DNA from: Polyangiaceae bacterium
GTDB lineage: Bacteria > Myxococcota_A > Polyangia > Polyangiales > Polyangiaceae
DNA length: 64,000 nt
Assembly (NCBI GenBank): GCA_023150915.1
Contig: JAKLKA010000009.1
Location: 1 to 64,000, forward strand
Reading direction: 5' to 3'
Part shown: positions 17,001-46,691 of the stretch, piece after piece
Layout: the number at the start of each line of letters is the position of its first letter
Position numbering within the stretch: position 1 is the stretch's first letter
The notes under the pieces: model-generated
The model's database searches: none
What the model was told of the DNA's origin: nothing
What the model saw: the letters and a program-made list of their open reading frames with translations, nothing else
Program-made: the position numbers and the translations under genes

Positions 17001-17576
17001 CTACTTCTTCAAGATCGCGTCCAGCGCCTTCTTGGCGACGGCCGGCTTGCCCTCGATCACCAGGATGATCGCGACCTCGGCCTTCTCGTCCAGGAAGACC
17101 GCGCCCTTGTCCTCGCGCATCTTCGCCTGGTCCTTGGGGGACATCATGCTGCCCGAGGCGCCGGATGGGGTGCGCGCGCGCCGCACCAGCTCGAAGGTGC
17201 CCTTGTCGTTGCCCTTCATCAGGCCGAACTCGATGTTCTCGAACTTTCCGACGGTGCCCTGGTTGATCTCGACCTCTTCAGGGGCCCAACCGGCCTTCTG
17301 CACCGCGGCCACCAGCGTCTTGGCGTCGATCTCGCTGATGCTGACGCCGCCGATCGTCGCCGAGCTCTTCGGCAGCTCGGGCGCGGGGGGCGGCTCGGGC
17401 GCGGGGGCCTTGGGCGGCTCTTCGGCCTTGGGCTCGGGCTTGGGCGCCTCGGGCTGGGGCGCTGGCGGCGCCGGTGCCGGCTCCGGCGCCTTGGCAGTTT
17501 CCGGTGGCGGCGGCGCGCCGCAGGCCGACAGCAAGAACCCGATCCCCAGCACCCACCCCACGCTCGACTTCCGCAT
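17001..17576 (-). CDS. Small Pro/Ala-linker lipoprotein
   Basis: 191 residues. The signal MRKSSVGWVLGIGFLLSAC places the lipobox Cys at 19. Residues 20-72 are a Pro/Ala/Glu/Lys linker typical of periplasm-spanning segments. A compact C-terminal domain (about 75-191) contains SATIGGVSISEIDAKTLVAAVQKAGW and ends in Lys-rich helices; no family was recognised. The neighbour at 17634 has the same layout and may share its transcript (57-base gap). Convergent with the GT-C-like gene, with stops one base apart. Confidence 0.78.
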   Translation of the reverse strand: MRKSSVGWVLGIGFLLSACGAPPPPETAKAPEPAPAPPAPQPEAPKPEPKAEEPPKAPAPEPPPAPELPKSSATIGGVSISEIDAKTLVAAVQKAGWAPEEVEINQGTVGKFENIEFGLMKGNDKGTFELVRRARTPSGASGSMMSPKDQAKMREDKGAVFLDEKAEVAIILVIEGKPAVAKKALDAILKK

Positions 17577-41632: not shown

Positions 41633-43534
41633 ATGGTTCGTTATCGTTGGCTTACCTCCAGTGTGATCGGTTTGGGCCTCGTTGCCTGTGGCAGCGACAG
41701 TGGGGGAGGCGGCGGGTCGGGTCCGCCAGACATCATCGACGTCGTGGCCGACACCAGCCGCGACGGTCTGGTGAACGCGGACGACCCGAAGGACCAAGAA
41801 CGCGAGAACGAGTGGGACGCCACCGTCGGCGCGTCGTTCATCGCCAACCTGGATGACGACGACAAAGACGGCAAGCGCGACTGCGAGGACGAGATCGTCA
41901 ACGGCCCCGCCGACCTCGCCGACCTGGCCGTGTTCAAGGTGAGCCCCTGGCCCACGGCGCCCCAAGACGCCGAGGGCGTGGTCATCATCGACCCCGAGGC
42001 GGCCGAGAGCGTCCGCATCTGGCGCGACAACCCGGACGGCACCCAGGCGCTGGTGCTGGGCAGCAAGGGGCCGTGCACGTCTGCCGCCGATTGCCAGTAC
42101 CTGCTCGAGTACCGCTTCGCTCAGGCGGAAGTGCTCACCGGCGTCACCTTCCGGATCGAAGGGCGTCGCTTCAAGGGCATGCCCCTGTCGAGCCTGATCC
42201 CGCAGGACGACGGAAAAAAGTTCCTATGGTCCGGGTTCGTCGACGTGGCCTTCATGGTCGCCAAGAAGGGCACCGGCGAGCGCTACGCGACCACGGATGT
42301 CCCCGACGGGTTCGATCGGGTGAAGCTGCGGGTCGCTCCGTGGCTGATGCTCGGCAGCTTGGGGCGGCACGACACGCTCTATTCGTCTGGGTTCTACTCG
42401 CCGCTGGTCGAGGGCAACACCGCCGCGGCCCAGGCCGCGAAGGTCGCGTATAGCCCGTATTCGCCCGATCCATCGGACTTCGGCGGCTGGTCGGACATCT
42501 GGACCGAGGACTTCTTCCAGACCGGGTGGACCGGGTTCCCCGGCCCGAACGGCACCGTCCAGGGCATGCGCATCTTCAACCCTCGCCCCTGGGGTCGCCC
42601 GCCGTCGCAGAATCCAACGCCCGAGCAGGTGAAGGATTATCACCCCACGCGCTGGATCTGGGGCAACCCCGAGAAGGGGCGCCCCGCCGCGGCGCTGGGC
42701 CCGGACCAGGGCGCGGCCGAGTTCTACAACCCCGAGAACTTCCAGACCGGGAACACCCAGGACTCTCACGGTAACCACGACCTGGTCCCGCCCCACAAGG
42801 ACTACAAGATGGGGCGCATCCTCCACGGCAACAAGGTGATGCAGAACACGCAGGACTTCTACACGGCTCAAGGCGTGCAGGGTCCGCCGATCGTGCTCGA
42901 CACCACCTGGCTCGCGGTCGAGCACGTGGACGAGTTCTTCCACTTCGTACCGGCCAAGACCCCCCTCGGCTGGAAGCTCTTGGTCGCGTCGCCCGCGCTG
43001 ATGACCAAGATGCTCCAAGATCTGAAGGCCAAGGGTCAGGGGTCCGGCACCCTGCACCAGGGCCGTGGCGGCAACTTCCAGAAGACCGTCGACGAAGCCC
43101 TGGCCGACACCAAGCTGATGCAGTGGAGCGAAGCGGCCGACGTGAAGATCCAAGGCCACATCGATCAGATGAAGATGGAGACCGGGCTCACGGATGCCGA
43201 CATCATCGAGATCCCGACCTGGTTCGAAGATCTGGGCGTCAACGAGAAGGTGGCCTGGAACCCCGGGATGGTGAACATGCGCATGCTGGGCAGCGTGGCC
43301 AGCATCGCCAAGCCCTTCGGGCCCGACGTGGGTGGCAAAGACCCGTTCGAAGAGGACATCTTCGCGCGACTCGGTGGGCCCTCGAGCCAGCTGGGCTCGG
43401 ACGGTCAGGGGCTGAAGGTCTTCTTCACCGACGACTGGTCGTATCACGACTCACTTGGTGAGGTGCACTGCGCGACCAACGAGAGCGCACCGGCGCCGTT
43501 CGCGGCTGGCTTCTGGTGGGAGACTGCAAAATGA
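41633..43534 (+). CDS. Lipoprotein peptidyl-arginine deiminase (PAD family)
   Basis: 633 residues from ATG 41633, after AGGAG. Signal MVRYRWLTSSVIGLGLVAC (Cys 19). The protein follows the vertebrate PAD middle and catalytic domains: an acidic, Ca2+-site-like stretch (DTSRDGLVNADD; NLDDDDKDGKRDCEDE, residues 40-87), KLRVAPWLML (about 231-240), IWTEDFF with Asp293 in the place of PAD4 Asp350, WLAVEHVDEFFHFVP with His431 and Asp433 (PAD4 His471/Asp473), GMVNMRMLG, KPFGPDVGG, and GEVHCATN with nucleophile Cys613 (PAD4 Cys645). All four catalytic residues are intact. It should convert protein arginine to citrulline outside the cytosol. Overlaps the HEAT-like gene start (ATGA). Confidence 0.93.
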   Translation: MVRYRWLTSSVIGLGLVACGSDSGGGGGSGPPDIIDVVADTSRDGLVNADDPKDQERENEWDATVGASFIANLDDDDKDGKRDCEDEIVNGPADLADLAVFKVSPWPTAPQDAEGVVIIDPEAAESVRIWRDNPDGTQALVLGSKGPCTSAADCQYLLEYRFAQAEVLTGVTFRIEGRRFKGMPLSSLIPQDDGKKFLWSGFVDVAFMVAKKGTGERYATTDVPDGFDRVKLRVAPWLMLGSLGRHDTLYSSGFYSPLVEGNTAAAQAAKVAYSPYSPDPSDFGGWSDIWTEDFFQTGWTGFPGPNGTVQGMRIFNPRPWGRPPSQNPTPEQVKDYHPTRWIWGNPEKGRPAAALGPDQGAAEFYNPENFQTGNTQDSHGNHDLVPPHKDYKMGRILHGNKVMQNTQDFYTAQGVQGPPIVLDTTWLAVEHVDEFFHFVPAKTPLGWKLLVASPALMTKMLQDLKAKGQGSGTLHQGRGGNFQKTVDEALADTKLMQWSEAADVKIQGHIDQMKMETGLTDADIIEIPTWFEDLGVNEKVAWNPGMVNMRMLGSVASIAKPFGPDVGGKDPFEEDIFARLGGPSSQLGSDGQGLKVFFTDDWSYHDSLGEVHCATNESAPAPFAAGFWWETAK

Positions 43535-44463
43535 AAGCACTGACCCGTCTGCTTGGTATCGGTTTGTTCCTGCTGGCGCCCTCGGCGCTGGCCGACGGCA
43601 TCAGCGTTGGCCCGTCGGCGTTGCCGAACGAGGCACGCGCCAAGCTCGAGAACGACATCGCCGCTGCCAAGGCCGCTCAGCCCAAGCTGTTCGCCGCCGT
43701 GAAGAACGTGAAGGGGCACCGCCCCGAGCACTATGGCAAAAACCGCAACCCCTTCCCCACGGCCGCCCGTGAGCTGCGCGGGCTCGGCCCGGCCGCGCTC
43801 TTGCCCATGCTCGAGGCGCTGGCCTTCCAGGCGCCTGATCGCGGCAAGCTCACCGACGCCGAGTGGGATGCGCTGGCCATCGGAATGCTCGAGGCCGTGG
43901 GCGTGATCAAAGACGCGCGCTCGGGCGCCGTGGTGGGCGCGATCTTCGAAGCCAGCGCGCTCCGCCCCGGCGTGCGCCTGGCGGCGGCGCGGGCGGCGGG
44001 CCGGCTGGGCGGTGACGCCGAGCTCGCCTTGCTCACCAGCCACGCCAAGAGCGGCGACCCGCTCGAGCTTCACGCCATCCACGGCCTGGGCGAGATGATG
44101 CGCCTCGACGCGGCCAAGCACGTGGCGCAGATCCTGGGCAGCACCAAAGATGCCCAGGTGGCCGAGGCGGCGGCCACCGCCCTCGGCACGCTGGGCTCGA
44201 GCTGGGCGTGGAAGTCGCTGGGCCCGAAGGCCCAGGCGACCGGGCTCGAGGTCCGCAAGGTGTGTGCGAACGCGCTGGCCCCCCGGGCCGTGCGCGGCAA
44301 AGCTGCGCTGCGCACCGCCGCGTCCGAAGCCCTGCTGATGGTCGACCACCCCGAGACCCTGGACCTGCTCCGTGCCCAGCGCTCGGTCAGCGGGACCGAC
44401 GCGCGGGTCGTGGACGGGCTGGTTGTCCGGGTCGAGCGGAAGCGCCAGCGCGCCCCGAAGTGA
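43531..44463 (+). CDS. Secreted HEAT-repeat-like protein coupled to PAD
   Basis: 310 residues from ATG 43531, coupled to the PAD gene by a 4-base overlap. Signal peptide MKALTRLLGIGLFLLAPSALA. The rest is helical: repeated pairs of helices such as ARELRGLGPAALLPMLEAL, RLAAARAAGRLGGDAELALL, AEAAATALGTLG suggest HEAT/PBS-type alpha-solenoid repeats (about 70-270). It ends with basic residues. Such solenoids mediate protein binding; the coupling suggests it works with the PAD, as adaptor or substrate-presenting partner. No direct proof. Confidence 0.8.
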   Translation: MKALTRLLGIGLFLLAPSALADGISVGPSALPNEARAKLENDIAAAKAAQPKLFAAVKNVKGHRPEHYGKNRNPFPTAARELRGLGPAALLPMLEALAFQAPDRGKLTDAEWDALAIGMLEAVGVIKDARSGAVVGAIFEASALRPGVRLAAARAAGRLGGDAELALLTSHAKSGDPLELHAIHGLGEMMRLDAAKHVAQILGSTKDAQVAEAAATALGTLGSSWAWKSLGPKAQATGLEVRKVCANALAPRAVRGKAALRTAASEALLMVDHPETLDLLRAQRSVSGTDARVVDGLVVRVERKRQRAPK

Positions 44464-44558: not shown

Positions 44559-46691
44559 ATGGTCCCTTTCCTGGGCGCGTTCGCCCTGGCCGGCCTGCTC
44601 TTGGCGTTTGGCCACGCGTCGGTGGTGGTCGTCGCGGCGAGCCTCAGCTTCGGGCTGTCCAGCGCGTTCGGCGGCGGCGCCTGGGCGGGCGCGGCGGGCA
44701 GTGTGGTGCTCAGCGCTGCGGGGCTCGTCCTGGCCGAGCTCGCCCTCCGGGCGCGGGCCGCCCGCCGCGATCCCCGCTGGGTCAGTGACGTCCGCACCCT
44801 GGCCGAGAGTCGCAGCGTGGCGCTCGACCGGATCGGCGGCGAAGCGCAGACCCTGGCGCGCGCGCTTCGCGTGGGCGTGGCGATCCCCGACACGCTGGTG
44901 CTCACCGCCGAGCTCACCGACGCCTGGCTGCGCGAGCTGCGGGTGGCGCGCCGCGGCGCCGACCCGGCCGGCGCGCTGCCCGCCGGCGCCGAGGGGCCGC
45001 TCGCCGCGTTCTTGCACGGCTGCGCGGGTGCGAAGATCACCGTGCGGGCATCGTTTCGCGGCACCGACCCCGCGGCCACGTACCCGGGCCTGTTCAGCGG
45101 CGTGACTGACGTCGACACGACCACGCTGCACTCGCTGGCAGCGGCGGTGGGCCGCGTCGTCGAATCTGCCGATTCGCCGCCCGTGCTCGACTATCGGCGC
45201 CGCATGCGCCAGGTGGCCACGCTGCACCGCTCGGTGGTGTTGCAGCGACAGGTCGACGCGGACGTCGCGGGTGTGGCGCAGTCGCGAGGCCTCGACGGTC
45301 GCGCCGACTCGATCTTGATCGACTTTGCAAAGCGTCGTGGGCCCACCATGACCGTGAGCTACGATCTGGTGGACGGCACCGTGATGGCCGTGGCTCCGGA
45401 AACGCCGCTGGACGCGACGCCCAGCTGGATGAACCGCCTGGCCGCGCTGGTGGTCGCGCTGGACAGCGAGCTTGGCGGCACGGTGTTGGTCCAGTTCGCG
45501 GTCGAGGGCGGGCGGCTCTGGGTGCAGTCGGTGCGGCGCGTGCAGACCGAGCAGCGCACCACCTGGGTCAGCGCCGGCGGCCCGCTCGAGGCGTTGTTTC
45601 CACGGCTGCCGCGCTTCGTGTGCGAGACCTTCGGCGACGGCGCGGTGCTCGCGGACGGGGTGAACGAGGCCCTGGCCGGTCTGGCGGTGGCCACGCCGGC
45701 GGACGTTCGCTTCGAAGAGGGCGTGCGCTACCTGAACGTCGAGGTGCTGCGGCGCGCGCTCGGTCGCCTGGGCGTCGAGGTTCTGTTTTCGGAACCGGTC
45801 TGGCGATTGCTCGCGCTGTCGCGCGGTCGGCCGCGGCGCGCCTTCATGAAGCCGCCCGAGGTCGACGCCGACATCGCCAAGAGCATCGACCGGCTGCGCG
45901 CCTGGCAGAGCCGCGTGCTCTTGCCGCTCTCGCGCGAGCACGTGGCGCTCGGCGTGCGCCGCTGGTTGATCGAGGCCGTGATCGGCATGCTCTCCGACGG
46001 CGCCACCGGTGAGCCGGTCCCCCGCATTCATCAGCGTCTGCGCCCCCTGCTCAAACGGCGAGCCGCCCGCTGCTCGGGCGAGCACGAGCGCGCGCGCCGC
46101 CACGTGGAAGAGAGCGAGCCGGCGGTGCGACAGCTCGCCGCTCAGATCTTGGCGCGCGGTGCCACCGACTGGAGCGGCGTGTTCGTCGGCGAGCGCCACC
46201 TGTACGCCGGGCTGGACGAGATGACGCGCTGGGCGCACTCACCGGCCGAGCGCGACGGCCTGGGTGCGGCGTGGGAAGAAGAGAAGCTCGGCTTCGAGGC
46301 GCGCCACCTGATGGAGACCCCCGAGCGGATCGTCGAGCCCGCGCCGCCCGACAGCATGCTCTCGCTGGCCGACTCGGCGCTGGCGGTGGTCGGCCTGACT
46401 GCGGGCGAAGCCGACGGCGTGGTGGCCGCGCCGACCGAGTCGCGCGGTCAGATCCCGGCTTCGGCCGTGGTGGTGTTGCCCGACGGCCGCCCGGACTTTG
46501 CCTGGGCCGTGCTCAGCGCGCGCGCGGTGGTCTTCACCGGCGGCGGCGCCCTCTCGCCCATGGCGCAACTGGCGCGCGAGCTGGGGATCCCTACGGTGAT
46601 CACCGTGCAGCGCTTGCCCGTCACCAGCCTCCCCATCGGGCGCACCGTCCACGTGGACGGCGCGCTGGGCGCGCTCGAGGTGCGACAGTGA
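44559..46691 (+). CDS. Degenerate PEP-utilising-enzyme-like membrane protein
   Basis: 710 residues from ATG 44559. N-terminal hydrophobic region with two membrane segments (about 5-65). The next part resembles the ATP-grasp (PPDK N-terminal) domain of PEP synthase-type enzymes: ITVRASFRGTDPAATYPGLFSGVTDV is the counterpart of the usual [21 protein letters not shown]. The C-terminal end (GGGALSPMAQLARELGIPTVI) is the phospho-His mobile domain, but the catalytic His of T-S-H is replaced by Pro. So phosphotransfer is probably lost. The protein may be a structural or regulatory derivative. The next gene's GTG overlaps its stop. Confidence 0.75.
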   Translation: MVPFLGAFALAGLLLAFGHASVVVVAASLSFGLSSAFGGGAWAGAAGSVVLSAAGLVLAELALRARAARRDPRWVSDVRTLAESRSVALDRIGGEAQTLARALRVGVAIPDTLVLTAELTDAWLRELRVARRGADPAGALPAGAEGPLAAFLHGCAGAKITVRASFRGTDPAATYPGLFSGVTDVDTTTLHSLAAAVGRVVESADSPPVLDYRRRMRQVATLHRSVVLQRQVDADVAGVAQSRGLDGRADSILIDFAKRRGPTMTVSYDLVDGTVMAVAPETPLDATPSWMNRLAALVVALDSELGGTVLVQFAVEGGRLWVQSVRRVQTEQRTTWVSAGGPLEALFPRLPRFVCETFGDGAVLADGVNEALAGLAVATPADVRFEEGVRYLNVEVLRRALGRLGVEVLFSEPVWRLLALSRGRPRRAFMKPPEVDADIAKSIDRLRAWQSRVLLPLSREHVALGVRRWLIEAVIGMLSDGATGEPVPRIHQRLRPLLKRRAARCSGEHERARRHVEESEPAVRQLAAQILARGATDWSGVFVGERHLYAGLDEMTRWAHSPAERDGLGAAWEEEKLGFEARHLMETPERIVEPAPPDSMLSLADSALAVVGLTAGEADGVVAAPTESRGQIPASAVVVLPDGRPDFAWAVLSARAVVFTGGGALSPMAQLARELGIPTVITVQRLPVTSLPIGRTVHVDGALGALEVRQ

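What the first reader, a model, noticed from the sequence alone, without database searches (positions are those of the whole stretch)
41633..44463. Bacterial lipoprotein homologue of vertebrate peptidyl-arginine deiminases with a HEAT-like partner
The catalytic residues and the acidic Ca2+-site-like part of vertebrate PADs all appear, in order, in a protein with a lipobox. Vertebrate-type PADs are known in some bacteria such as cyanobacteria, but a surface lipoprotein translationally coupled to a secreted alpha-solenoid protein is a distinct context. It would place citrullination at the cell envelope of a predatory-type bacterium.
Basis: partly seen in the sequence, partly recalled or inferred. 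Interest (0 to 1): 0.75.

Follow-up and report, generated by a model that had tools for sequence, protein, structure and literature searches.

The report
Envelope protein-arginine deiminase with HEAT partner
A myxobacterium-like bacterium encodes a relative of the human protein-citrullinating enzymes that appears to be lipid-anchored in its envelope, together with a dedicated helical-repeat partner protein, which suggests that citrullination in such bacteria is a two-protein system.

Summary
ORF 41633-43534 is a protein-arginine deiminase (Pfam PAD 3e-60; model on human PAD4 Z 45.4, 1.7 A over 508 residues) with a lipobox and the tetrad D293/H431/D433/C613. Its stop overlaps (ATGA) the start of an exported HEAT-repeat gene. 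Two corrections. It is not the vertebrate type: it lacks PAD_N, groups with Streptomyces PADs and not with PAD4 (100/99 support), keeps Ca3/Ca4 ligands, has lost the Ca2 ligands and has a rebuilt Ca1 loop. And the context is general: in 94 of 377 sampled Myxococcota genomes with PADs, 102 of 117 PAD genes or fragments have a HEAT-repeat gene on the same strand within 3 kb; 9 of the other 15 end at a contig edge and 2 have lost catalytic residues. A second PAD lineage, on PAD4's side, has its own related HEAT partner. Most are predicted lipoproteins. The one residue besides Met1 invariant in each partner family is an arginine. Best reading: a lipid-anchored two-domain PAD with a dedicated HEAT subunit. 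Activity, metal and complex are untested. The papers searched do not describe the pairing.

The parts
41633..43534 (+). lipid-anchored two-domain protein-arginine deiminase (PAD_M + PAD_C), 633 aa
   Evidence: Pfam PAD 3.1e-60 and PAD_M 7.6e-6; PAD4 fold Z 45.4
41633..41689 (+). lipoprotein signal peptide; lipobox LVAC with Cys19 at 41687-41689
   Evidence: sequence; same feature across the family
41846..41923 (+). Ca3/Ca4-type acidic segment N72-D74-D76-D83-D94-D97 (PAD4 N153, D155, D157, D165, D176, D179)
   Evidence: alignment with PAD4
42509..42511 (+). catalytic Asp293 (PAD4 D350); beside it E292 and Q296 replace the Ca1 ligands Q349 and E353, and F294 replaces the Ca2 ligand E351
42764..42781 (+). 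SHGNHD (378-383): rebuilt Ca1 loop (PAD4 SFGNLE, 406-411)
42923..42931 (+). catalytic His431 and Asp433 (PAD4 H471, D473)
43469..43471 (+). catalytic Cys613 (PAD4 C645)
43531..44463 (+). HEAT-repeat partner with signal peptide, 310 aa; starts inside the PAD stop (ATGA)
   Evidence: model pLDDT 94.5; alphaRep/HEAT folds
43744..43746 (+). Arg72 of the partner: the only residue besides Met1 identical in all 47 aligned partners of this type; aligns with the invariant Arg of the other partner family

Best explanation
The locus encodes one functional unit of two exported proteins. The PAD is secreted through Sec, lipidated at Cys19 and held in the envelope (which membrane and face is not known). Its pentein domain hydrolyses the guanidinium of arginine side chains through C613, H431, D293 and D433 to give citrulline. 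Metal bound at the Ca3/Ca4 acidic cluster orders the enzyme; the catalytic-domain metal site differs from animal PADs (no Ca2 site, Ca1 rebuilt). The HEAT protein is made by translational coupling, exported, and binds the PAD as a dedicated subunit, where it regulates activity or selects the substrate. I think it most likely contacts the substrate side of the PAD with its N-terminal arginine loop. SHOWN by sequence and model: family, tetrad, lipobox, coupling, near-constant pairing. INFERRED: lipidation, location, deiminase activity, metal, physical complex. GUESSED: that the arginine loop reaches the active site.
For: Family and fold. Tetrad 83 of 83. Ca3/Ca4 ligands in the window's type: N153, D155, D157, D165 and D179 positions 50 of 50, D176 49 of 50, D388 44 of 50. 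Pairing: in fetched loci 49 of 50 PADs of the window's type have the partner on the same strand, 48 downstream, 1 upstream; the exception ends 68 nt from a contig edge. Over 377 genomes, 64 of 66 strong partner matches lie next to a PAD; the other 2 are partial, in genomes whose PAD is cut by a contig edge. PAD4-side lineage: 29 of 30 (the exception has 412 nt of room) plus L092. All PAD genes or fragments: 102 of 117. Start at -4 in 32 of 47 partners. PAD and partner distances correlate, r 0.77, 5000 permutations at most 0.23. Only invariant residue of the partner besides Met1: Arg, 47 of 47 and 30 of 30, in the same hhalign column.
Against: No complex could be modelled. The partner's Arg is also kept in 11 of 13 partner homologues that have no PAD beside them (10 of the 13 from genomes with no PAD found), so it may be structural. 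The Arg-to-Arg match rests on the whole-protein profile alignment; the N-terminal part alone aligned only up to the helix before it (probability 22; best of 20 shuffles 1.2). The correlation of distances is partly shared descent, and only 11 of 17 within-genome paralogues have the same nearest foreign neighbour for both proteins. Three Streptomycetaceae PADs have no partner within about 4 kb. One intact-looking PAD (L143) and one PAD fused to UCH (L144) lack one. Starts and lipoboxes were picked by a rule of mine.
Confidence: 0.6

Rival explanations
1. The HEAT protein is an export or folding chaperone of the PAD and not part of the working enzyme.
For: Tight co-occurrence, coupling and a signal peptide of its own fit a periplasmic chaperone as well. 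Streptomycetaceae PADs, exported across one membrane, lack it.
Against: A folding aid need not keep one invariant Arg in a loop across two divergent families; a generic chaperone would be expected away from PADs, yet no strong window-type partner match was found in a genome without a PAD.
Confidence: 0.2
2. The HEAT protein is an inhibitor (immunity-like) that keeps the PAD silent in the producer's own envelope.
For: Same genetics as enzyme-inhibitor pairs; an invariant Arg in a partner of an arginine-modifying enzyme invites a pseudo-substrate role; in apo PAD2 an arginine of the enzyme itself fills the active site (PMC11067741, passages seen). Two full-length PAD homologues with a broken tetrad (L142, L145) have no partner, as expected if the partner answers to activity.
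Against: Inhibitors in conflict systems vary fast (general knowledge), this Arg does not; orphan homologues keep the Arg; the PAD is anchored, not released, as far as the lipobox tells.
Confidence: 0.2
3. The enzyme is no longer a peptidyl-arginine deiminase: the rebuilt Ca1 loop and the loss of the PAD4 R372/R374 counterparts mean another guanidino substrate or a transition metal.
For: In the window's subfamily (18 of 50) eight positions around the active site are changed together: E/Q, aromatic or L, Q, R, W/F, H/Y, H, D/E.
Against: Tetrad, Trp347 equivalent and overall fold unchanged; the other window-type PADs keep most Ca1-type residues and have the same partner.
Confidence: 0.15
4. PAD and HEAT are neighbours by chance or by inherited gene order only.
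For: Related genomes keep gene order; other neighbours are shared only within limited groups.
Against: 102 of 117 PAD genes or fragments over 94 genomes, two PAD lineages, while no other neighbour family exceeded 9 loci in the clustering.
Confidence: 0.02

Closest known systems
Human PAD4 (PADI4) and the other animal PADs
   Same: PAD_M and PAD_C fold, catalytic tetrad, Trp347 equivalent, Ca3/Ca4 acidic cluster
   Different: no PAD_N domain, no Ca2 ligands, rebuilt Ca1 loop, lipid anchor, HEAT partner; other side of the PAD tree
Two-domain bacterial and fungal PADs (clade B of Cummings et al. 2021, PMC8826395)
   Same: PAD_C plus divergent PAD_M, no PAD_N, Ca2 ligands lost; groups with Streptomyces PADs
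   Different: lipobox and HEAT partner, neither found in the three Streptomycetaceae loci; Asp at the PAD4 D388 position in 44 of 50, where that paper reports glycine in actinobacteria and fungi
cyanoPADI of Cyanothece PCC 8801 (three-domain bacterial PAD, Ca2+-dependent, active in vitro)
   Same: bacterial PAD family member (PMC8826395, passages seen)
   Different: three domains, Ca2 and Ca4 sites; its gene neighbourhood could not be examined here
Porphyromonas gingivalis PPAD
   Same: bacterial citrullinating enzyme with a distant PAD_C domain (PMC8826395, passage)
   Different: lacks PAD_M; its family was not matched by the window protein
HEAT/PBS-lyase-like solenoids such as alphaRep, CpcE/F and NblB
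   Same: HEAT-repeat fold
   Different: far below the NCBIfam cut-offs of CpcE and NblB (14-23 against 300-330 bits); signal peptide; tied to PAD

Membership tests
Protein-arginine deiminase family (PAD_C, PF03068) | catalytic domain over the curated cut-off | tested here: met
   204.7 bits, cut-off 25
Protein-arginine deiminase family (PAD_C, PF03068) | Asp350/His471/Asp473/Cys645 equivalents | tested here: met
   D293, H431, D433, C613; 83 of 83
Protein-arginine deiminase family (PAD_C, PF03068) | PAD fold | tested here: met
   Z 45.4, rmsd 1.7, 508 aligned, PAD4 112-663
Protein-arginine deiminase family (PAD_C, PF03068) | citrullination of peptidyl-arginine | not testable with these tools
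   needs an assay
Vertebrate-type three-domain PAD (clade A) | PAD_N domain | tested here: not met
   no PAD_N match at E up to 1; residues 1-31 low confidence, structural match begins at PAD4 residue 112
Vertebrate-type three-domain PAD (clade A) | groups with animal PAD | tested here: not met
   PAD4 lies on the other side of a 100/99 branch; one animal and no cyanobacterial sequence used
Vertebrate-type three-domain PAD (clade A) | Ca2 ligands E351, D369 | tested here: not met
   F294 and P317; 0 of 50 in the window's type
Vertebrate-type three-domain PAD (clade A) | Ca3/Ca4 ligands | tested here: met
   N72, D74, D76, D83, D94, D97, D358
Vertebrate-type three-domain PAD (clade A) | Ca1 ligands Q349, E353, E411 | tested here: inconclusive
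   E292, Q296, D383: could still bind a metal
Two-domain PAD (clade B) | PAD_M + PAD_C, no PAD_N, Ca2 site lost, groups with actinobacterial PADs | tested here: met
   fungal sequences not available
Bacterial lipoprotein | signal peptide with lipobox | tested here: met
   MVRYRWLTSSVIGLGLVAC; rule-based scan
Bacterial lipoprotein | lipidated and in the envelope | not testable with these tools
   needs labelling and fractionation
HEAT-repeat protein | HEAT repeats over the Pfam cut-off, solenoid model | tested here: met
   HEAT_2 30.6 bits, cut-off 27.7; pLDDT 94.5 and HEAT/alphaRep matches
PPAD-type deiminase (Porphyromonas) | PPAD-family domain | tested here: not met
   only PAD and PAD_M matched among Pfam models at E up to 1

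The most novel reading that the evidence does not exclude
PADs began as a two-component envelope machine. The ancestral bacterial enzyme worked with a HEAT-repeat subunit whose invariant arginine sits in or at the active site as a built-in pseudo-substrate or first substrate. Both PAD lineages in Myxococcota, including the one on PAD4's side, still carry it, while free-standing PADs (Streptomyces, and perhaps cyanobacteria and animals) lost the partner, the latter possibly in exchange for PAD_N and homodimerisation. In the window's branch the catalytic metal site has moved from Ca2+ towards a His/Asp-ligated metal.
Probability: 0.2. Interest if true: 0.85.

Novelty: new variant of a known kind. 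Interest (0 to 1): 0.62.

Why it matters
What bacteria do with vertebrate-like citrullinating enzymes is an open question. That Myxococcota keep them as predicted envelope lipoproteins with a near-obligate HEAT partner gives a defined two-protein unit to express and assay, a candidate regulator for a family whose animal members are drug targets, and a second bacterial lineage on PAD4's side with Ca2-type ligands outside cyanobacteria, which bears on the account of how animals got the enzyme.

Tried and rejected
Rejected: 'the PAD4-side (QDE) lineage has no HEAT partner'. My first profile, built from the window-type partner, found 0 of 30 there; clustering all neighbours showed a second, divergent HEAT family, and a profile of it found 29 of 30. 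The early reading that HEAT marks one clade, also in my notes, is withdrawn.

Rejected: the window's enzyme as a vertebrate-type PAD.

Weakened: the arginine loop as proof of an active-site contact, because PAD-less homologues keep it in 11 of 13.

Led nowhere: viral-contig scans (none); a conserved third gene (none in more than 9 loci); NCBIfam. Cyanobacterial and fungal PADs could not be obtained, so the sister relations of animal PADs are untested. Model coordinates are not readable here, so exposure of Arg72 and the geometry of the metal site were not measured. An AU test of moving PAD4 to the window's subfamily did not finish; one search failed on a label error of mine and was rerun. In the tree, 68 of the 84 rows were used. 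Of 125 PAD match rows, 80 loci were fetched at first; 20 more regions followed and 9 (8 of the 15 partnerless PADs and one tandem pair); 117 genes or fragments remain after I joined pieces of one gene. L092 was missed by my PAD scan and is not in alignments A1 or A3. Partner matches in whole genomes come from a first look that scores only 6 candidates a genome, so partners may have been missed.
Full report
What is there. On the + strand, 41633-43534 encodes a 633-residue protein with a lipoprotein signal (LVAC, Cys19), a Pfam PAD_C domain (residues 228-629, 204.7 bits against a cut-off of 25) and a PAD_M domain just over its cut-off (26.1 against 24.8). Among solved structures the best sequence matches are human PAD4, then PAD1, 3, 2 and 6. 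A model built on 49 relatives (mean pLDDT 87.5) superposes on PAD4 with Z 45.4, 1.7 A over 508 residues, model 32-633 on PAD4 112-663 (2dw5). So the two C-terminal parts of a PAD are present and the first domain, PAD_N, is not. The stop codon overlaps the start of 43531-44463, which encodes a Sec-type signal peptide and HEAT repeats (HEAT_2 30.6 bits; model pLDDT 94.5; best folds alphaRep and other HEAT solenoids, Z 16.2).

Catalytic residues and metal sites. In an alignment of 83 PADs (80 from Myxococcota, 3 from Streptomycetaceae plasmids) D293, H431, D433 and C613 are invariant. Against PAD4 (residue roles from passages of PMC3559651 and PMC13023937): the Ca3/Ca4 ligands are kept (N72, D74, D76, D83, D94, D97, D358; 44 to 50 of 50 in PADs of the window's type); the Ca2 ligands are gone (E351 and D369 equivalents 0 of 50); Ca1 is partly kept in the type as a whole (Q349 42, E353 31, E411 33 of 50). 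In a well-supported subfamily of 18 that holds the window, the catalytic-domain site is changed as a block: E/Q292, Q296, R318, W/F320, and DS(H/Y)GNH(D/E) where PAD4 has DSFGNLE. That PAD4 F407 and L410 bind Ca1 through their main chain is recalled. Whether the two histidines bind a metal cannot be told without coordinates.

Distribution and lineage. This genome has two PADs. Of 377 genomes sampled from its phylum, 94 have a PAD over the cut-off; the phylum is Myxococcota by the title of a same-genus MAG (G276 has contigs of the same lengths). The tree splits the PADs in two: one side holds the window's type and the Streptomyces PADs, the other holds human PAD4 and 30 Myxococcota PADs with the PAD4-like motif QDE-x-E (support 99 on 84 rows; 100/99 on 68 rows). 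The second side keeps Ca2-type ligands (E351 30 of 30, D369 29 of 30). Cummings et al. (PMC8826395; sections 6 and 7 read, passages elsewhere) report Ca sites 2 and 4 as exclusive to the cyanobacterial/animal clade and no species with both PAD types. The QDE lineage, which has Ca2-type ligands but no PAD_M match in Pfam (0 of 30), and genome G376, which carries one PAD of each side (L041, L042; 86% complete, 1% contamination), do not fit those two statements as worded. I had no cyanobacterial sequence, so I cannot say where the QDE lineage joins.

Lipid anchor. A strict rule (start codon, charged n-region, hydrophobic core, lipobox) is met by 42 of 49 window-type PADs and 22 of 29 QDE-type PADs, one truncated in each group left out; 0 of 3 Streptomycetaceae; 41 of 546 other ORFs of 450 aa or more in the same loci. 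Several failures still show a cysteine after a hydrophobic core by eye (FPGC, LWGC, FGC), so the share is probably higher.

The partner. With a profile of the window's HEAT protein, 49 of 50 window-type PAD loci have it on the same strand: 48 downstream, 1 (L058) upstream; L050 ends 68 nt after the PAD. Over the 377 genomes there are 66 strong matches (87.7 bits or more; the next is 58.7): 64 beside a PAD and 2 partial ones in genomes whose PAD is cut by a contig edge; none in a genome without a PAD. The start overlaps the PAD stop by 4 nt in 32 of 47. Clustering every other neighbour in the fetched loci found one more large family: a second HEAT protein beside QDE-type PADs (22 loci). Its profile finds it in 29 of 30 QDE loci (L042 has 412 nt of room) and in L092; in L105 it follows two tandem PADs. 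HEAT_2 is matched in 8 of 8 tested, out of 30. All together 102 of 117 PAD genes or fragments have a partner on the same strand within 3 kb. Of the 15 others, 9 end at a contig edge, G287:C341 is a 137-residue piece, G285:C127 is a short divergent PAD 0.7 kb from a contig end, and 4 have room: L142 and L145 have lost catalytic residues, L143 looks intact, and L144 is a PAD fused to a UCH domain, with no lipobox that I could see.

Are the two partners related, and what is conserved? hhalign of the two alignments gives probability 95.8, E 7.4e-9 over 204 columns. HEAT families resemble each other, so this alone is weak; the N-terminal pre-repeat part by itself gives probability 22, with 20 column shuffles at most 1.2. 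In each alignment exactly one residue besides Met1 is invariant, and it is an arginine N-terminal to the repeats: R72 in 47 of 47 window-type partners (the two left out, L053 and L058, also have Arg there) and R95 in 30 of 30 of the other family. In one search they fall in one column. An invariant arginine in the partner of an arginine-modifying enzyme suggests a pseudo-substrate or first substrate. Against it: 15 of 52 strong matches of the second family are not beside a PAD; two of these (G256, G218) look like contig-edge cases, the other 13 form two orphan lineages nested among PAD-linked partners, and 11 of the 13 keep the Arg. So the arginine may be structural, or these homologues may have another partner.

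Co-inheritance. PAD and partner distance matrices correlate at r 0.77 over 47 pairs, permutations at most 0.23 in 5000; 11 of 17 paralogues in multi-copy genomes share the nearest foreign neighbour for both genes. This fits transfer and duplication as a unit but does not separate physical interaction from shared descent.

Mechanism and verdict. The best-supported account is a lipid-anchored two-domain PAD that works with a dedicated exported HEAT subunit. The pairing is shown; the complex, the activity, the metal and the place in the envelope are inferred. I put 0.6 on this account against a chaperone, an inhibitor or a changed substrate. PADs in bacteria are known (PMC8826395 counts 69 species of Proteobacteria); I found no paper on a HEAT partner or on lipoprotein PADs of this family in the listings, in a library without most subscription journals. 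Hence a new variant of a known kind.

Noticed in passing
L041 and L042 (genome G376): One genome carries a PAD of each lineage (window type with HEAT, and QDE type near a contig end), against the published statement that no species has both types.
   Followed up: partly
L040:3-1895 (this genome's second PAD, contig C175) and L039: A Somatomedin B domain, otherwise known mainly from animal proteins (recalled), lies N-terminal to the PAD (38.3 and 35.7 bits; 3 of 49 window-type PADs).
   Followed up: partly
L144:3674-7237 (-) (G351:C122): A 1188-residue ORF joins a divergent PAD to a UCH-type ubiquitin hydrolase domain, without a HEAT partner.
   Followed up: partly
L142 (G320:C187) and L145 (G229:C103): Two PAD homologues with room downstream have lost tetrad residues and have no HEAT partner.
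   Followed up: partly
L122-L131 (genus g113), L132-L134: Homologues of the second HEAT partner without any PAD beside them, in two nested lineages; upstream neighbours are varied.
   Followed up: partly
L149:2491-6666 (-) (G091:C110): Two tandem QDE-type PADs followed by one HEAT partner.
   Followed up: no
window 44559-46691 (+): ORF downstream of the pair with a PEP-utilising mobile domain (38.5 bits); it did not appear among the conserved neighbours.
   Followed up: no
window 17401-17496 (+): ARAGORN reports a tRNA-like gene with a two-base anticodon, probably spurious.
   Followed up: no
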